This document shows, in pieces, positions 57,890 to 64,000 of a stretch of DNA of 64,000 bases. The DNA is from Candidatus Nitrosocosmicus oleophilus (GTDB taxonomy: Archaea; Thermoproteota; Nitrososphaeria; Nitrososphaerales; Nitrososphaeraceae): the NCBI RefSeq assembly GCF_000802205.1, contig NZ_CP012850.1:2816587-2880586 (forward strand). Direction: 5' to 3'. The translations under genes and the position numbers were made by a program. Numbering within the stretch: the stretch's first letter is position 1; each line of letters opens with the position of its first letter. The notes beneath the pieces are model-generated. The model saw only the letters and a program-made list of their open reading frames with translations. It had not been told where the DNA came from and ran no database searches.

Positions 57890-58312
57890 TTGCTTAAGAA
57901 AGACAAAGATTTTAAGGAAATTTTTGCTAATTTTTTAAGCAACAAGACCAGTTTGTTTTTGTTTTTATCTATAGTGGTTGCTAGCGTAGCCATATATCCA
58001 TTTGTTATACCTCACCTATACCACCCTTCCATGATTTATCATATTCTCATTCATATTATTAGTTTTGACGTGGCCCTTTTTCTAACTACGATTTCGTTTG
58101 TCTCCTACAAGAGGACGAAAAGTAAAAAAATACTCTTGACAGGCTTAAGTTTTGGATTCTTGTTGGTTGTAGAGTTTTTGTATTTATTACAGTCAAGTAG
58201 GGTTTTGGGAACATTCTACATACCTTTAATAGAGGTTGAATTTCAACATGTGTTGTTATTATTGATGTTAGTACTGTTTGCTGCAGGTGTATTGAGGTTG
58301 GAAAGAAAATGA
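57890..58312 (+). CDS. Four-helix membrane protein next to a wHTH regulator
   Basis: Up to 140 residues with four predicted helices (SLFLFLSIVVASVAIYPFV, IYHILIHIISFDVALFLTTISF, ILLTGLSFGFLLVVEFLYLL, VLLLLMLVLFAAGVLRL). The TTG at 57890 overlaps a TATA-like box (57882-57889), so the true start is probably a few codons later, for example a TTG near 57953. Its stop overlaps the start of the transcription-factor gene (ATGA), so they are translated together. It may sense a signal at the membrane for the regulator. Confidence 0.7.
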   Translation: MLKKDKDFKEIFANFLSNKTSLFLFLSIVVASVAIYPFVIPHLYHPSMIYHILIHIISFDVALFLTTISFVSYKRTKSKKILLTGLSFGFLLVVEFLYLLQSSRVLGTFYIPLIEVEFQHVLLLLMLVLFAAGVLRLERK

Positions 58313-58860
58313 ATCCGAGCACTATTTTTAATGAGAACGATGTAGAGTCGAATGGAGATAACAGAAGTACAATACTCAGAATTATCAACTCCTTTCCGGG
58401 GATTAGATATAGAGATATTCTAAGAATTACAAATCTTAATAATGGCACCTTATCTCATCATCTATCAATTCTTGAAAAAAGGTCAATAATAAAAATTGGT
58501 CGAACAGAAAATAGCAACATTACTAGATACTTCCCAGCGTCAACGCCATCGGAAGAAACCCTTATACTAAATTACCTGAAAATAAAGACCACTAAAAGTA
58601 TAATCATGATGTTAATCGATACTGAAGACGACGTATCCTTTAATGAAATTGTAAAACATATCAATAAAGCACCCTCTACTACTTCATGGAATCTTAAGAG
58701 ATTAGTTGATTCAAATGTTGTTGGGAGAAAAAGAGGCAAAGAGGTTTCATTATTTTGTCTTAATAATAAAGGATTGGTAAAGAATCTTGTTGGTCAAAAT
58801 AACAAAACATTACTTGATAGAAGCATTGATAACTATATATCAATAATAGACGAGCTGTAA
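58309..58860 (+). CDS. Tandem winged-helix transcription regulator
   Basis: 183 residues with two winged-helix units. First (about 18-78): RSTILRIINSFPGIRYRDIL and NLNNGTLSHHLSILEKRSII, then a wing RTENSNITRYFP. Second (about 85-150): TKSIIMMLIDTEDDVSFNEI and STTSWNLKRLVDSNVVGRKRGKEVSLFCL. Similar archaeal proteins pair with small membrane proteins and act as local repressors or activators. Overlaps the membrane-protein gene by 4 bp. The signal is unknown. Confidence 0.85.
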   Translation: MNPSTIFNENDVESNGDNRSTILRIINSFPGIRYRDILRITNLNNGTLSHHLSILEKRSIIKIGRTENSNITRYFPASTPSEETLILNYLKIKTTKSIIMMLIDTEDDVSFNEIVKHINKAPSTTSWNLKRLVDSNVVGRKRGKEVSLFCLNNKGLVKNLVGQNNKTLLDRSIDNYISIIDEL

Positions 58861-59027: not shown

Positions 59028-59471
59028 ATGAACCACTCTGCCGATAACCCAGATAAGGGCTCTGATATCAAAGATAAATTAGAGTATCTTTTTGAGATGC
59101 AAAAGTCTTTGATAACTCAAGACTATACCAGTACAAGAATTAATAGTTCTGAAAAGATTCCTCTAGATACTACCCCGGAAAACAAAATGAAGAAATTATA
59201 CGAGATGAAAGAACCATTTTCAGGTTACAGAATATTTATGATTTCGTCTGCTTTAGTGCACGAAGCTATAGAGCTTCAAAGAGAAACAAACTGGAAATGG
59301 TGGAAGAAAGATAAAACCGTAGATAATGAAAAACTCCAAGAAGAAATTATAGACTTGTGGCATTTTTTAATTCAATTGTCAATTGAGGCCGGCTTTGAAC
59401 CACAAACATTGATATCAAAATATATGGAAAAAAACAAAGAGAATACCGGAAGACAGCTAAGAGGTTACTAA
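59028..59471 (+). CDS. Dimeric-type dUTPase (all-alpha NTP pyrophosphatase)
   Basis: 147 residues of the MazG-related dimeric dUTPase family. Motifs: HEAIELQRETNWKWWKK, supplying metal-binding Glu residues, and EEIIDLWHFLIQLSIEAGF with the Glu/Asp pair. The segment ISKYMEKNKENTGRQLRGY matches the K..N..RQ..GY ending. It hydrolyses dUTP (perhaps dUDP) to keep uracil out of DNA. The N-terminal 45 residues are polar. No adjacent partner. Confidence 0.85.
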   Translation: MNHSADNPDKGSDIKDKLEYLFEMQKSLITQDYTSTRINSSEKIPLDTTPENKMKKLYEMKEPFSGYRIFMISSALVHEAIELQRETNWKWWKKDKTVDNEKLQEEIIDLWHFLIQLSIEAGFEPQTLISKYMEKNKENTGRQLRGY

Positions 59472-60160: not shown

Positions 60161-60811
60161 ATGCAATATTCCAATATACCTGGCCAAAATATCGTTATAA
60201 AGAATGTGACTTTTCAAGATATTCCCAAAATAATTGAATTACAAAAGGAATCATTTCCATCCATGTTAGAAGAAGGCAGTGTTTGGGGAAAGAGGCATCT
60301 TCAAAGTCATGTGGAAATATTTCCAGAAGGTCAATTTTGCGTTGAATTTGAGAACAAAATCATAGGTTCGTCAAGCAGTTTAATAGTAAAGTTACCATCT
60401 GAATATGAAGTACACACATTTAGCCAGGTGACTGGCAACAGTCTATTTACCACCCATGATCCTAAGGGTGATTCTTTGTATGGTGCTGACATTTCTGTTC
60501 ATCCTGATTACCGTCGATTAGGGATTGCAACTCTGTTATACAAAGCAAGAAAGGATCTGGTAATAAAATATAATTTAAGGCGAATCATAGCTGGCGGTAG
60601 GTTAATCAACTACTGTAATTATGCAGAAAAATTTTCCCCGGATGAATATGTTCAAAACGTGATAAGTGGACAAATTTCAGATCAGGTCCTGACCTTTCAA
60701 TTGAAAAATGATTTTAAATTCATAAAAATACTTCCAAATTATATCAAGGATTCAAGGTCTTTAAACTATGCAACATTTATTGAATGGATAAATCCATATT
60801 ATAAAAAGTGA
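60161..60811 (+). CDS. GNAT acetyltransferase (YhcX N-domain-like)
   Basis: 216 residues. GNAT fold with acetyl-CoA motif DISVHPDYRRLGIATLLYKARKDL (near 110-133), then LRRIIAGGRLINYCNYAEKFSPDEYV and LTFQLKNDFKFIKILPNYIKDSRSLNYATFIEW. This order matches the N-terminal half of GNAT/carbon-nitrogen-hydrolase fusion proteins (YhcX type), but no nitrilase half follows. Instead the stop overlaps the start of an amidohydrolase gene (GTGA), so a partner switch is likely. The substrate is unknown. Confidence 0.85.
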   Translation: MQYSNIPGQNIVIKNVTFQDIPKIIELQKESFPSMLEEGSVWGKRHLQSHVEIFPEGQFCVEFENKIIGSSSSLIVKLPSEYEVHTFSQVTGNSLFTTHDPKGDSLYGADISVHPDYRRLGIATLLYKARKDLVIKYNLRRIIAGGRLINYCNYAEKFSPDEYVQNVISGQISDQVLTFQLKNDFKFIKILPNYIKDSRSLNYATFIEWINPYYKK

Positions 60812-61611
60812 CCCAAACCATCATTGATTGCCATGTGCACATAAATGGCTACGAGAGTTTAAAAAATTTACCACTAAAAGAAAGAATAGAATCACTTTCT
60901 AACACAATGCAGTCAAACAACGTAGACCAGGCTATAATTCTTTCATCGTATACTATCAATGAAGAAAGACCATCCACTGGACAAATATTGTCTGCCACTG
61001 AAAATAATGAAAAAATTAAAGTAGTGGCAGGATATTCAATTAGCAATCATGATGAAAGCAGTATTAAAGAATATGAAGAATATCTTAAAAATGGTAAAAT
61101 AAAAGGTTTAAAAATTTATCCAGGATACGAGCATTACTATCCATATGATCCAAAATATCAGAAAGTTATTGATTTATGTATAGAGTATGATGTCCCTCTA
61201 ATGATACATACTGGAGATACATATACACCAAAGGGGAAGGTCAGATTTGCTCATCCGATAAATGTTGACGATGTTGCTGTTGATAACCCAGAACTAAAGA
61301 TCATAATTTGTCACTTGGGAAATCCATGGTTTTTAGATTGCCAGGAGATAATTTATAAAAACAAAAATGTTTACGCAGATATATCGGGATTGGTTTTAGG
61401 GGATTTTACGGAATTCTATGAGAAGTATCTAGTGGGCAAGATTACAGATTTTCTCAACTATGCTGGAGAACCAAAGTATCTGCTATACGGGACTGATTGG
61501 CCCATTTCAAGTATGAAATCTTATTTGAATTTTGTATCAAAGTTAGACCTTAATCAGCAAGAACGGGATTTGATCATGTTTAAAAATTCACAAAGGTTGT
61601 TTAAACTGTGA
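60808..61611 (+). CDS. Amidohydrolase-2 family metal-dependent hydrolase
   Basis: 267 residues from GTG. TIM-barrel hydrolase: metal motif IIDCHVHINGYE (HxH), VPLMIHTGDTY, VDNPELKIIICHLGNPWF, YLLYGTDWPISSM (Asp). The family includes decarboxylases and lactonases acting on carboxylic-acid or lactone substrates. Translationally coupled to the GNAT gene. A GGTAAC-GT-GTTACC palindrome followed by T4 lies 20 bp downstream as a terminator. Confidence 0.88.
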   Translation: MTQTIIDCHVHINGYESLKNLPLKERIESLSNTMQSNNVDQAIILSSYTINEERPSTGQILSATENNEKIKVVAGYSISNHDESSIKEYEEYLKNGKIKGLKIYPGYEHYYPYDPKYQKVIDLCIEYDVPLMIHTGDTYTPKGKVRFAHPINVDDVAVDNPELKIIICHLGNPWFLDCQEIIYKNKNVYADISGLVLGDFTEFYEKYLVGKITDFLNYAGEPKYLLYGTDWPISSMKSYLNFVSKLDLNQQERDLIMFKNSQRLFKL

Positions 61612-62044: not shown

Positions 62045-64000
62045 TTATATTCTCGATGGTTTGACTACCGCTTTCGCTTGAGCCTGTTGAACCTGTGCTA
62101 CCTGTTGTTCCTGAACCTGTGCTACCTGTTTGACTACCGCTTTCGCTTGAGCCTGTTGAACCTGTGCTACCTGTTGTTCCTGAACCTGTGCTACCTGTTG
62201 TTCCTGAACCTGTGCTACCTGTTGTTCCTGAACCTGTGCTACCTGTTGTTCCTGAACCTGTGCTACCTGTTGTTCCTGAACCTGTGCTACCTGTTGTTCC
62301 TGAACCTGTGCTACCTGTTGTTCCTGAACCTGTGCTACCTGTTGTTCCTGAACCTGTGCTACCTGTTGTTCCTGAACCAGCGGTGCCTGTTTGACTACCG
62401 CTTTCGCTTGAGCCTGTTGAACCTGTGCTACCTGTTGTTCCTGAACCTGTGCTACCTGTTGTTCCTGAACCTGTGCTACCTGTTGTTCCTGAACCTGTGC
62501 TACCTGTTGTTCCTGAACCTGTGCTACCTGTTTGACTACCGCTTTCGCTTGAGCCTGTTGAACCTGTGCTACCTGTTGTTCCTGAACCTGTGCTACCTGT
62601 TGTTCCTGAACCTGTGCTACCTGTTGTTCCTGAACCTGTGCTACCTGTTGTTCCTGAACCTGTGCTACCTGTTGTTCCTGAACCTGTGCTACTGTTGTTC
62701 CTGAACAGCTGTTTTGACTACCGCTTTCGCTTGAGCCTGTTGAACCTGTGCTACCTGTTGTTCCTGAACCTGTGCTACCTGTTGTTCCTGAACCTGTGCT
62801 ACCTGTTGTTCCTGAACCTGTGCTACCTGTTGTTCCTGAACCTGTGCTACCTGTTGTTCCTGAACCTGTGCTACCTGTTGTTCCTGAACCAGCGGTGCCT
62901 GTTTGACTACCGCTTTCGCTTGAGCCTGTTGAACCTGTGCTACCTGTTGTTCCTGAACCTGTGCTACCTGTTGTTCCTGAACCTGTGCTACCTGTTGTTC
63001 CTGAACCTGTGCTACCTGTTGTTCCTGAACCTGTGCTACCTGTTGTTCCTGAACCTGTGCTACCTGTTTGACTACCGCTTTCGCTTGAGCCTGTTGAACC
63101 TGTGCTACCTGTTGTTCCTGAACCTGTGCTACCTGTTGTTCCTGAACCTGTGCTACCTGTTGTTCCTGAACCTGTGCTACCTGTTGTTCCTGAACCTGTG
63201 CTGTCAGAGGAATCACTACCTGAACCTGTGCTGTCAGAGGAATCACTACCTGAGCCTGTGCTGTCAGAGGAATCACTACCTGAGCCTGTGCTGTCAGAGG
63301 AATCACTACCTGAGCCTGTGCTGTCAGAGGAATCACTACCTGAGCCTGTGCTGTCAGAGGAATCACTACCTGAGCCTGTGCTGTCAGAGGAATCACTACC
63401 TGAGCCTGTGCTGTCAGAGGAATCACTACCTGAGCCTGTGCTGTCAGAGGAATCACTACCTGAGCCTGTGCTGTCAGAGGAATCACTACCTGAGCCTGTG
63501 CTGTCAGAGGAATCACTACCTGAGCCTGTGCTGTCAGAGGAATCACTACCTGAGCCTGTGCTGTCAGAGGAATCACTACCTGAGCCTGTGCTGTCAGAGG
63601 AATCACTACCTGAGCCTGTGCTGTCAGAGGAATCACTACCTGAGCCTGTGCTGTCAGAGGAATCACTACCTGATTCGGTCCCTTGGCCTGCACTAATACT
63701 ACCGCTATTATCTTGGTTTTGTACTGCGAAATTGTTACCTGAACTAAGGTCATCAATTCCACCTCCAAAGCTCTTCTGCTCATCTGAAGAATCATTGTCG
63801 GAACTTACTTGTTCGGGACCGCTAGACTCTTCACTATTTTGAATCGGAGATCCGGATACGGCTTGATCCATTGATTCGACTTCTGACCTATTAGAATTTA
63901 CATTTGGCTGATCACTACCATGGCATAGACCATTTGGTAGTGAAACACTACAATTATTGTCCTTATATTCATTATTGTTTATGTTTGTCGGTAATCCGTT
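62045..64000 (-). CDS. Partial surface protein: beta-helix end plus long SD and TG repeats, with an internal frame slip
   Basis: The frame stays open to the window edge, so the start lies beyond 64000. The first visible residues (NGLP ... DNNC ... LPNGLCHG) match the C-terminal end of the beta-helix protein at 3211-4245 at about 18 of 28 positions. Then come a Ser/Asn/Asp linker, 16 copies of a 10-residue GSDSSDSTGS unit and many 8-residue TGSGTTGS units broken by TGSSESGSQ blocks. Near 62692 one C of the repeat consensus is missing; downstream the frame reads VAQVQEQQ units and stops at 62045. In the unslipped frame the protein would keep TGSGTTGS units and end ...TQTNNSSSSSI at 61989. A sequencing error, a pseudogene or phase variation are possible. 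Likely a surface stalk or adhesin-like protein. Confidence 0.72.
   Translation of the reverse strand, partial: NGLPTNINNNEYKDNNCSVSLPNGLCHGSDQPNVNSNRSEVESMDQAVSGSPIQNSEESSGPEQVSSDNDSSDEQKSFGGGIDDLSSGNNFAVQNQDNSGSISAGQGTESGSDSSDSTGSGSDSSDSTGSGSDSSDSTGSGSDSSDSTGSGSDSSDSTGSGSDSSDSTGSGSDSSDSTGSGSDSSDSTGSGSDSSDSTGSGSDSSDSTGSGSDSSDSTGSGSDSSDSTGSGSDSSDSTGSGSDSSDSTGSGSDSSDSTGSGSDSSDSTGSGTTGSTGSGTTGSTGSGTTGSTGSGTTGSTGSTGSSESGSQTGSTGSGTTGSTGSGTTGSTGSGTTGSTGSGTTGSTGSGTTGSTGSTGSSESGSQTGTAGSGTTGSTGSGTTGSTGSGTTGSTGSGTTGSTGSGTTGSTGSGTTGSTGSTGSSESGSQNSCSGTTVAQVQEQQVAQVQEQQVAQVQEQQVAQVQEQQVAQVQEQQVAQVQQAQAKAVVKQVAQVQEQQVAQVQEQQVAQVQEQQVAQVQEQQVAQVQQAQAKAVVKQAPLVQEQQVAQVQEQQVAQVQEQQVAQVQEQQVAQVQEQQVAQVQEQQVAQVQEQQVAQVQEQQVAQVQEQQVAQVQQAQAKAVVKQVAQVQEQQVAQVQQAQAKAVVKPSRI
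62061..63200. repeat. 24-bp tandem repeat array with longer spacer blocks
   Basis: Units read CTACCTGTTGTTCCTGAACC plus TGTG on the plus strand (24 bp, coding TGSGTTGS on the minus strand). Five runs are separated by blocks coding GSSESGSQ. One unit at about 62692 lacks a C. Units are near-identical, indicating recent expansion. Confidence 0.92.
63201..63680. repeat. 30-bp tandem repeat array, 16 units
   Basis: Sixteen units of 30 bp, each CTGTCAGAGGAATCACTACC plus TGAGCCTGTG (the first has one base changed), coding GSDSSDSTGS on the minus strand. Exactly in frame; no spacers, so not CRISPR. Confidence 0.95.

What the first reader, a model, noticed from the sequence alone, without database searches (positions are those of the whole stretch)
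60161..61611. Stand-alone YhcX-type GNAT coupled to an amidohydrolase instead of its usual nitrilase
The GNAT protein has the motif order of the N-terminal half of GNAT/nitrilase fusions. Here it ends there and overlaps (GTGA) an amidohydrolase-2 gene. Replacing one hydrolase by another behind the same acetyltransferase hints that the GNAT domain defines a substrate or product class, with the hydrolase interchangeable.
Basis: partly seen in the sequence, partly recalled or inferred. Interest (0 to 1): 0.5.

Follow-up and report, generated by a model that had tools for sequence, protein, structure and literature searches.

The report
Acetyltransferase-amidohydrolase gene pair in archaea
Ammonia-oxidising archaea carry a tightly linked pair of genes, an acetyltransferase related to one usually fused to a nitrilase plus a different hydrolase, which suggests an uncharacterised two-enzyme step acting on a small amine.

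Summary
The window GNAT (60161-60811) overlaps an Amidohydro_2 gene (60808-61611) by GTGA. The pair is a fixed unit of ammonia-oxidising archaea: of 43 sampled genomes with both genes, 42 keep them adjacent, 40 on one strand with the second start within -11..+15 nt of the first stop. The GNAT belongs to the family of nitrilase-fused GNATs, though its exact place there is unresolved. A third hydrolase class (Amidohydro_3) accompanies relatives in Deinococcota and Acidobacteria, beside 4-aminobutyrate transaminase, succinate-semialdehyde dehydrogenase or PotB/C/D-like genes. Conversely, non-AOA relatives of this amidohydrolase are followed by a short GNAT of another family (8 of 9; the ninth is cut by a contig end). 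So both partners are exchanged while the pairing stays. The catalytic dyad of the closest solved folds, decarboxylases such as CurA, is lost. Best reading: N-acylation of a small amine or omega-amino acid, then hydrolysis. The substrate is unproven; the polyamine/GABA link rests on bacterial neighbours and was not found beside the AOA pair.

The parts
60161..60811 (+). Stand-alone GNAT (216 aa) of the nitrilase-fused ('YhcX-type') family
   Evidence: ORF; PF00583; trees; model pLDDT 93.9
60467..60550 (+). Conserved GDSLYGADISVHPDYRRLGIATLLYKAR block, GNAT residues 103-130, with the CoA-binding R-x-x-G-x-A motif
   Evidence: G103, L106, Y107 invariant in 43 of 43 aligned relatives; P115, R118, Y127, R130 in 40-42 of 43; motif name recalled
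60596..60598 (+). Gly146, aligned with CurA Thr355 (decarboxylase dyad)
   Evidence: G in 36 of 43, A in 5, S in 2; role of Thr355 in PMC3701320 (passages)
60698..60700 (+). Gln180, aligned with CurA His389
   Evidence: Q in 34 of 43, E 3, D 2, H 1 (L052), other 3
60808..60811 (+). GTGA stop/start overlap joining the two genes
   Evidence: a 4-bp overlap is possible in 27 of 40 same-strand AOA pairs
60808..61611 (+). Amidohydro_2 metallohydrolase (267 aa)
   Evidence: PF04909 E 2.7e-28; H9, H11, H134, H169, D230 invariant in the 25 AOA copies aligned; model pLDDT 89.7
60832..60840 (+). HxH metal-ligand motif (His9, His11) of the amidohydrolase
   Evidence: alignment; ligand role from knowledge of the superfamily (recalled)

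Best explanation
The two genes form one translationally coupled unit for a two-enzyme metabolic step. The GNAT transfers an acyl group (probably acetyl) from acyl-CoA to the free amine of a small di-/polyamine or omega-amino compound; the metal-dependent amidohydrolase then hydrolyses the N-acylated product or a compound made from it. The chemistry 'GNAT plus amide hydrolase' is kept while either protein can be exchanged: nitrilase, Amidohydro_3 or Amidohydro_2 with this GNAT family, and a short GNAT of another family with this amidohydrolase group in other archaea. Shown by sequence: pairing, overlapping or abutting genes, family membership, exchange on both sides, intact metal ligands, loss of the decarboxylase dyad. 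Inferred: N-acylation, hydrolysis, order of steps, and the substrate class, for which the bacterial neighbours (GABA transaminase, SSADH, PotB/C/D-like transporters) point to putrescine/GABA-type amines.
For: Adjacency in 42 of 43 genomes with both genes, 40 same strand; co-occurrence in 200 class genomes: both 43, GNAT only 5 (two fragments, one broken by a stop), close amidohydrolase only 1 (cut by its contig end). GNAT tree: AOA one clade, 100/98, in the nitrilase-fused family. Three hydrolase classes with one GNAT family. Bacterial loci: GABA-T hit within 4 kb in 38 of 50, SSADH 15, Pot 16, Amidohydro_3 21; NCBIfam models PotD, PotB/C, 4-aminobutyrate transaminase, SSADH for examples; GNAT fused to aminotransferase III in L125. 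Amidohydrolase relatives outside AOA with a short GNAT, 8 of 9. Metal ligands invariant in 25 of 25 aligned. Among folds after the CurA group, serotonin N-acetyltransferase is one of the best (Z 19.0).
Against: No hit to the GABA-T, SSADH, PotD or PotB/C reference proteins within 4 kb in the 30 AOA loci of the scan, many cut by contig ends; the best class III aminotransferase of this genome is only 31% identical to the bacterial GABA-T. Nitrilase-fused relatives, the possible sisters of the AOA clade, show no such context in 32 of 33 loci nor in the 4 fused loci of the scan; the sister relation itself is weak (87/29). The canonical GNAT general-acid position is Gln here, not Tyr. Closest Amidohydro_2 folds include decarboxylases, hydratases and lactonases as well as hydrolases. 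The same reference proteins for amine genes were not found in six short-GNAT loci, L182-L187. 25 of the 50 bacterial loci show none of the three hydrolases within 4 kb.
Confidence: 0.45

Rival explanations
1. Decarboxylase-type chemistry: the GNAT is a relative of the PKS loading-module and malonyl-CoA decarboxylase GNATs and decarboxylates an acyl-CoA, while the Amidohydro_2 protein is an ACMSD-like decarboxylase/hydratase/lactonase of a carboxylic acid.
For: GNAT profile hits SxtA/CurA/GphF decarboxylase domains at E 1e-16 to 1e-10, far above other GNATs (next 1.8e-4); model Z about 24 to GphF, SxtA, CurA against 19 for the next. Amidohydrolase model matches BB4693, COG3618, LigJ, ACMSD-type structures.
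Against: The His-Ser/Thr dyad needed for decarboxylation (PMC3701320, passages) is Gly/Ala/Ser and mostly Gln here; His at the His position in 1 of 43. Occurrence with nitrilases and GABA-T fits amine chemistry better.
Confidence: 0.15
2. Detoxification: the GNAT acetylates a toxic environmental amine or antibiotic and the amidohydrolase degrades it further; the pair is an accessory resistance module, hence its patchy distribution.
For: Patchy presence (48 of 200 class genomes) in mostly changing gene neighbourhoods.
Against: No PADLOC hit (that library covers phage defence only); wide conservation within AOA with intact active sites; bacterial relatives lie beside amine-catabolic genes.
Confidence: 0.15
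3. Protein or peptide modification: the GNAT is a protein N-acetyltransferase and the amidohydrolase a deacylase.
For: Many of the next fold matches are Ard1/Nat-type N-terminal acetyltransferases (Z 16-19).
Against: The family is clearly closer to the CurA group; fusions with nitrilase and aminotransferase point to small molecules.
Confidence: 0.08
4. The genes share a transcript for expression reasons only and act on unrelated substrates.
For: I saw no fusion of this GNAT with Amidohydro_2 in the AOA loci read.
Against: Linkage kept in 42 of 43 genomes across different neighbourhoods, convergent but still adjacent in 2 (L041, L048); independent GNAT-amidohydrolase coupling in non-AOA archaea.
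Confidence: 0.12

Closest known systems
GNAT/carbon-nitrogen hydrolase (nitrilase) fusion proteins, the group to which Bacillus YhcX is said to belong
   Same: GNAT domain is homologous over nearly its whole length (46-49% identity to the closest fusions) and belongs to the same family in the tree. yhcX mutants of B. amyloliquefaciens make less IAA (24% less in SQR9; PMC4558970, passages).
   Different: Here the GNAT is a separate protein and its partner is an Amidohydro_2 metalloenzyme, not a nitrilase. That YhcX has this domain order is recalled.
PKS loading-module GNAT decarboxylases (CurA GNATL, GphF, SxtA) and malonyl-CoA decarboxylase
   Same: Closest solved relatives by sequence and fold; malonyl-CoA decarboxylase itself at Z 16.3.
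   Different: Catalytic Thr355/His389 replaced by Gly146/Gln180; stand-alone protein.
ACMSD/COG3618 branch of Amidohydro_2 (3irs BB4693, 4dlf, 2-pyrone-4,6-dicarboxylate hydrolases, ACMSD)
   Same: Fold (Z 20-25), Pfam PF04909, metal ligands.
   Different: 11-19% identity to the listed structures; the nearest one (BB4693) is titled uncharacterised; NCBIfam has no model that scores this protein over its cut-off.
N-acetylated or gamma-glutamylated putrescine catabolism (protect, transaminate, oxidise, deprotect)
   Same: Bacterial relatives lie beside GABA-T, SSADH, Pot transport genes and an amidohydrolase, the enzyme set such a route would need (pathway recalled).
   Different: These genes were not found beside the AOA pair; no activity shown.

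Membership tests
Nitrilase-fused ('YhcX-type') GNAT family | GNAT domain inside that family by phylogeny | tested here: met
   All 56 ingroup rows stand together against the PKS GNATs (100/100); split-nitrilase rows branch first (95/89), then an unresolved fork of three nitrilase-fused lineages, AOA + 4 fused rows (87/29) and the GABA-T/Amidohydro_3 clade
Nitrilase-fused ('YhcX-type') GNAT family | Nitrilase domain in the same protein or next gene | tested here: not met
   ORF ends after the GNAT; next gene is PF04909; the only nitrilase found is over 1 Mb away
Decarboxylase GNATs (CurA/GphF/MCD) | GNAT fold of this subtype | tested here: met
   Z 23.6-24.2, rmsd 2.1-2.8 over 192-203 residues
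Decarboxylase GNATs (CurA/GphF/MCD) | His-Ser/Thr catalytic dyad | tested here: not met
   Window Gly146/Gln180; in 43 rows G 36/A 5/S 2 and Q 34, H 1; dyad from PMC3701320 passages
Canonical amine N-acetyltransferases | CoA-binding motif R/Q-x-x-G-x-G/A | tested here: met
   R118-R-L-G121-I-A123 (alignment); motif recalled
Canonical amine N-acetyltransferases | Tyr general acid at the position of CurA His389 | tested here: not met
   Gln180; equivalence stated in PMC3701320 (passages)
Amidohydro_2 (PF04909) | Profile score over cut-off and metal ligands HxH, H, H, D | tested here: met
   100 bits against 26.4; invariant in the 25 copies aligned
Amidohydro_2 (PF04909) | Amide hydrolysis | not testable with these tools
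   needs enzyme assay
Polyamine/GABA catabolic operon | GABA-T, SSADH or Pot genes beside the pair | tested here: not met
   0 of 30 AOA loci; met in bacterial relatives (GABA-T in 38 of 50)

The most novel reading that the evidence does not exclude
A two-part principle, 'any GNAT plus any amide hydrolase', recurs for one chemical job: the GNAT family has kept its job while nitrilase, Amidohydro_3 and Amidohydro_2 were exchanged, and this Amidohydro_2 group has kept its job while two different GNAT families were exchanged. In ammonia-oxidising archaea the unit would be the unrecognised acylation/deacylation step of polyamines, which Nitrosocosmicus releases under high ammonia and for which catabolic genes were reported missing in AOA.
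Probability: 0.2. Interest if true: 0.72.

Novelty: new variant of a known kind. Interest (0 to 1): 0.5.

Why it matters
AOA are widespread nitrifiers, and how they handle organic amines is open: 'Ca. Nitrosocosmicus agrestis' produces putrescine and spermidine at high ammonia, found in the culture supernatant (PMC8573960, passages; its pathway legend also names a putrescine aminotransferase), and a survey of nitrifier genomes reports that its AOA lack polyamine catabolic genes, while citing nitrite formation from labelled putrescine in AOA cultures (PMC10753782, passages). A conserved GNAT-amidohydrolase unit is a concrete, testable candidate. More generally, exchange of both partners around a fixed pairing offers a way to infer the function of two poorly characterised families (nitrilase-fused GNATs and this Amidohydro_2 group) at once.

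Tried and rejected
Considered and rejected or lowered: (1) chance overlap or misassembly: excluded by recurrence in 42 AOA loci. (2) The GNAT as a CurA/MCD-type decarboxylase: fold fits, dyad does not. (3) A nitrilase elsewhere in the genome as the lost partner: the only one found is of another type. One AOA locus, L166, has a nitrilase-like hit (44% over a short stretch) 3 kb from the GNAT, beside an intact amidohydrolase; not followed. (4) Phage defence: no PADLOC hit. (5) Presence of class III aminotransferases along with the pair: useless, all 200 genomes have them. (6) Context of nitrilase-fused relatives as substrate evidence: 33 loci, one informative (L230). (7) The AU test of one clade for the amidohydrolases gave p 0.00076 against it, but I had put L196 on the wrong side; the tree places it inside the short-GNAT clade, and its downstream side is off the contig, so I do not use that test. 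(8) Sigma-70 promoter and terminator scans found nothing above shuffles and do not suit archaea. (9) Literature: ten searches of the open-licence library showed me no paper on this pair or on this GNAT with Amidohydro_2; only the listed rows and, in four papers, passages were seen; no whole paper was read. (10) A phylum-wide search from an Acidobacteria genome for the GNAT-aminotransferase fusion at E <= 1e-150 hit 2 of 149 genomes, so that fusion is not common there.

Full report
What is there. On the + strand the window holds a 216-aa GNAT (60161-60811) and a 267-aa Amidohydro_2 protein (60808-61611, GTG start) that share GTGA.

How general it is in ammonia-oxidising archaea (AOA). Of 200 genomes of the class, 48 have the GNAT and 44 a close copy of the amidohydrolase (E < 1e-60); 43 have both, counted by hand from those two lists. 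GNAT without the close amidohydrolase: G152, G058, G078 (GNAT broken by a stop), G133 and G197 (fragments). Amidohydrolase without GNAT: G187, cut at its contig end. I read 54 loci, one for each GNAT match in these 48 genomes: 42 have the two genes adjacent, 40 on one strand and 2 convergent (L041, L048). In G184 they lie on different contigs (L046, L180). In all 40 same-strand pairs a start codon for the amidohydrolase lies within -11 to +15 nt of the GNAT stop; 27 allow an exact 4-bp overlap. Genes further out mostly differ between groups of loci, so the pair, not the neighbourhood, is what is kept. In 398 genomes of the phylum the 28 with the GNAT (E <= 1e-20) all belong to the two families f1 and f2.

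A second, solitary GNAT. The own genome and 5 others of the genus have a second copy (window genome G000:C1:2676610, 52% identical) with no amidohydrolase, near a polyprenyl-synthase-like and a nitroreductase-like gene (names from reading the sequences, not from a family search). The two solitary copies of this genus in alignment A4 (L047, L049) have Asp where the window has Gln180; three copies of another AOA subgroup (L041, L048, L175) have Glu there.

Where the GNAT belongs. Plasmid-collection tblastn gave 20 records, among them annotated GNAT/carbon-nitrogen-hydrolase fusions, nitrilase and GNAT as neighbouring separate genes (Priestia; Paenibacillus by similarity), and two Deinococcus operons. 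A genome-contig scan with a Deinococcus/AOA alignment kept 80 of 120 relatives; its patterns (GD[WS]LYGAD among them) and its ranking by a Deinococcus query favour one branch, so the counts below are not family-wide. The careful tree uses 58 of the 109 rows of the quick tree, two of them PKS GNAT domains as outgroup; long-branched rows such as L051 and L052 were left out. Split-nitrilase rows branch first (95/89). Then follows an unresolved fork: three nitrilase-fused lineages, AOA (one clade, 100/98) with four more nitrilase-fused rows (weak, 87/29), and a bacterial clade with GABA-T/Amidohydro_3 contexts (99/96). The quick tree of 109 rows agrees in outline (AOA clade 94). The root hangs on a long outgroup branch (1.5).

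Exchange of the hydrolase. In the 50 bacterial loci, within 4 kb of the GNAT: Amidohydro_3 in 21, nitrilase (fused) in 4, Amidohydro_2 in 0, none of the three in 25 (some cut by contig ends); class III aminotransferase in 38, SSADH-like in 15, PotD or PotB/C-like in 16; no GABA-T or Pot hit in 12 (similarity to single reference proteins, the weakest near 30%, table). Pfam and NCBIfam on examples: Amidohydro_3 (L095), 4-aminobutyrate transaminase (L088, L110, L125), SSADH (L112), PotD (L104), PotB/C (L142); of these only the L088 transaminase passes an NCBIfam cut-off. In L125 the GNAT is fused to the aminotransferase, and the ORFs of L120 and L127 read the same; at E <= 1e-150 a search for this fusion hit 2 of 149 genomes of that phylum. 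In the 30 AOA loci the amidohydrolase was found in 27 and none of the amine references in any; one (L166) has a nitrilase-like hit 3 kb away.

Exchange of the GNAT. The closest relatives of the window amidohydrolase outside AOA (30-36% identity, families f4, f13, f15 of the class) are directly followed by a different, 160-186-aa GNAT (PF00583 E 1e-12 to 2e-15 in the four scanned). Its profile does not match the window GNAT, and blastp aligns only 27-45 residues around the CoA motif at E below 0.001: another family of the superfamily. I read 18 such non-AOA loci (L182-L199). Eight (L182-L189) have the short GNAT; a ninth member of their clade (L196) ends at its contig edge; nine more distant ones lack it (only this short GNAT was sought there). 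The amidohydrolase tree of 44 rows separates AOA plus the short-GNAT group from the rest (97/93), with AOA 100/99 and the short-GNAT group with L196 97/97. Bacterial Amidohydro_2 proteins were not in that tree; the listed plasmid relatives were 21-29% identical (30 of 138 records listed).

Nitrilase-fused relatives. I fetched 33 further fusion loci from two phyla. 32 have no GABA-T, SSADH or Pot hit. The exception, L230, reads GNAT-nitrilase fusion, second GNAT, GABA-T, SSADH, without Amidohydro_3: the gene set of the Acidobacteria loci with a nitrilase in place of Amidohydro_3, though in another order. It links the nitrilase form to the same pathway, but it is a single case.

Structure and active sites. 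GNAT model pLDDT 93.9: best solved folds are GphF, SxtA and CurA decarboxylase-type domains (Z 23.6-24.2, rmsd 2.1-2.8 over 192-203 residues), then ordinary N-acetyltransferases including serotonin N-acetyltransferase (Z 19 and below). The CurA dyad Thr355/His389 (PMC3701320, passages) corresponds to Gly146/Gln180; over 43 relatives G 36, A 5, S 2 and Q 34, E 3, D 2, H 1, others 3. Neither the decarboxylase His nor the Tyr of ordinary GNATs is there, so the acid/base is unknown; Tyr163 (43 of 43) is a candidate. Amidohydrolase model pLDDT 89.7: best matches are BB4693, COG3618, LigJ and ACMSD-type structures; His9, His11, His134, His169 and Asp230 are invariant in the 25 AOA copies aligned.

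Mechanism. I favour N-acylation of a small amine followed by hydrolysis. The pairing, coupling and exchange are shown by sequence; acyl transfer, hydrolysis and substrate are inferred. The polyamine/GABA reading comes from bacterial relatives and from what is published on AOA polyamines (PMC8573960 and PMC10753782, passages). In the window genome there are four class III aminotransferases, none close to bacterial GABA-T (best by E-value 31% identical), and three aldehyde dehydrogenases, so a full GABA route is not evident.

Verdict. A real and conserved gene pair that I found described in none of ten searches (named under Tried and rejected), a new variant of the known GNAT-hydrolase theme. 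Interest 0.5, because the substrate is open.

Noticed in passing
L182-L189 (non-AOA archaea; e.g. L183:5188-6515, L186:5287-6632): Amidohydro_2 relatives coupled to a short GNAT of another family in reversed gene order; L183 and L186 are near lipoate/dihydrolipoamide-dehydrogenase-like genes (read by eye).
   Followed up: partly
L119, L120, L122, L123, L125-L128, L132, L133, L135, L136 (Acidobacteria): GNAT directly followed by or fused to a 4-aminobutyrate-transaminase-like domain; fusion confirmed by Pfam in L125 only.
   Followed up: partly
L142, L144, L146, L147, L154 (Anaerolineae): Two tandem GNATs of this family between divergent PotB/C/D-like genes and a saccharopine-dehydrogenase-like gene plus class III aminotransferase.
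   Followed up: partly
L230 (G747): GNAT-nitrilase fusion, second GNAT, GABA-T and SSADH in one run, without Amidohydro_3.
   Followed up: partly
G000:C1:2676610-2677239 (L047): Second, solitary GNAT copy in the own genome and five others of the genus, with Asp in place of Gln180 in the two aligned.
   Followed up: partly
L166:7747-8025: Nitrilase-like hit (44% over about 93 residues) 3 kb from an AOA GNAT-amidohydrolase pair.
   Followed up: no
window 62045-64000: Very repetitive Ser/Gly/Thr-rich ORF (GSDSSDST and TGSGT repeats) on the - strand, open in other frames too, running off the window end.
   Followed up: no
window 59028-59471: dUTPase_2-like gene (PF08761 E 1.9e-14) beside an HTH regulator (58309-58860); both kept upstream of the pair in 6 loci of the genus.
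   Followed up: no
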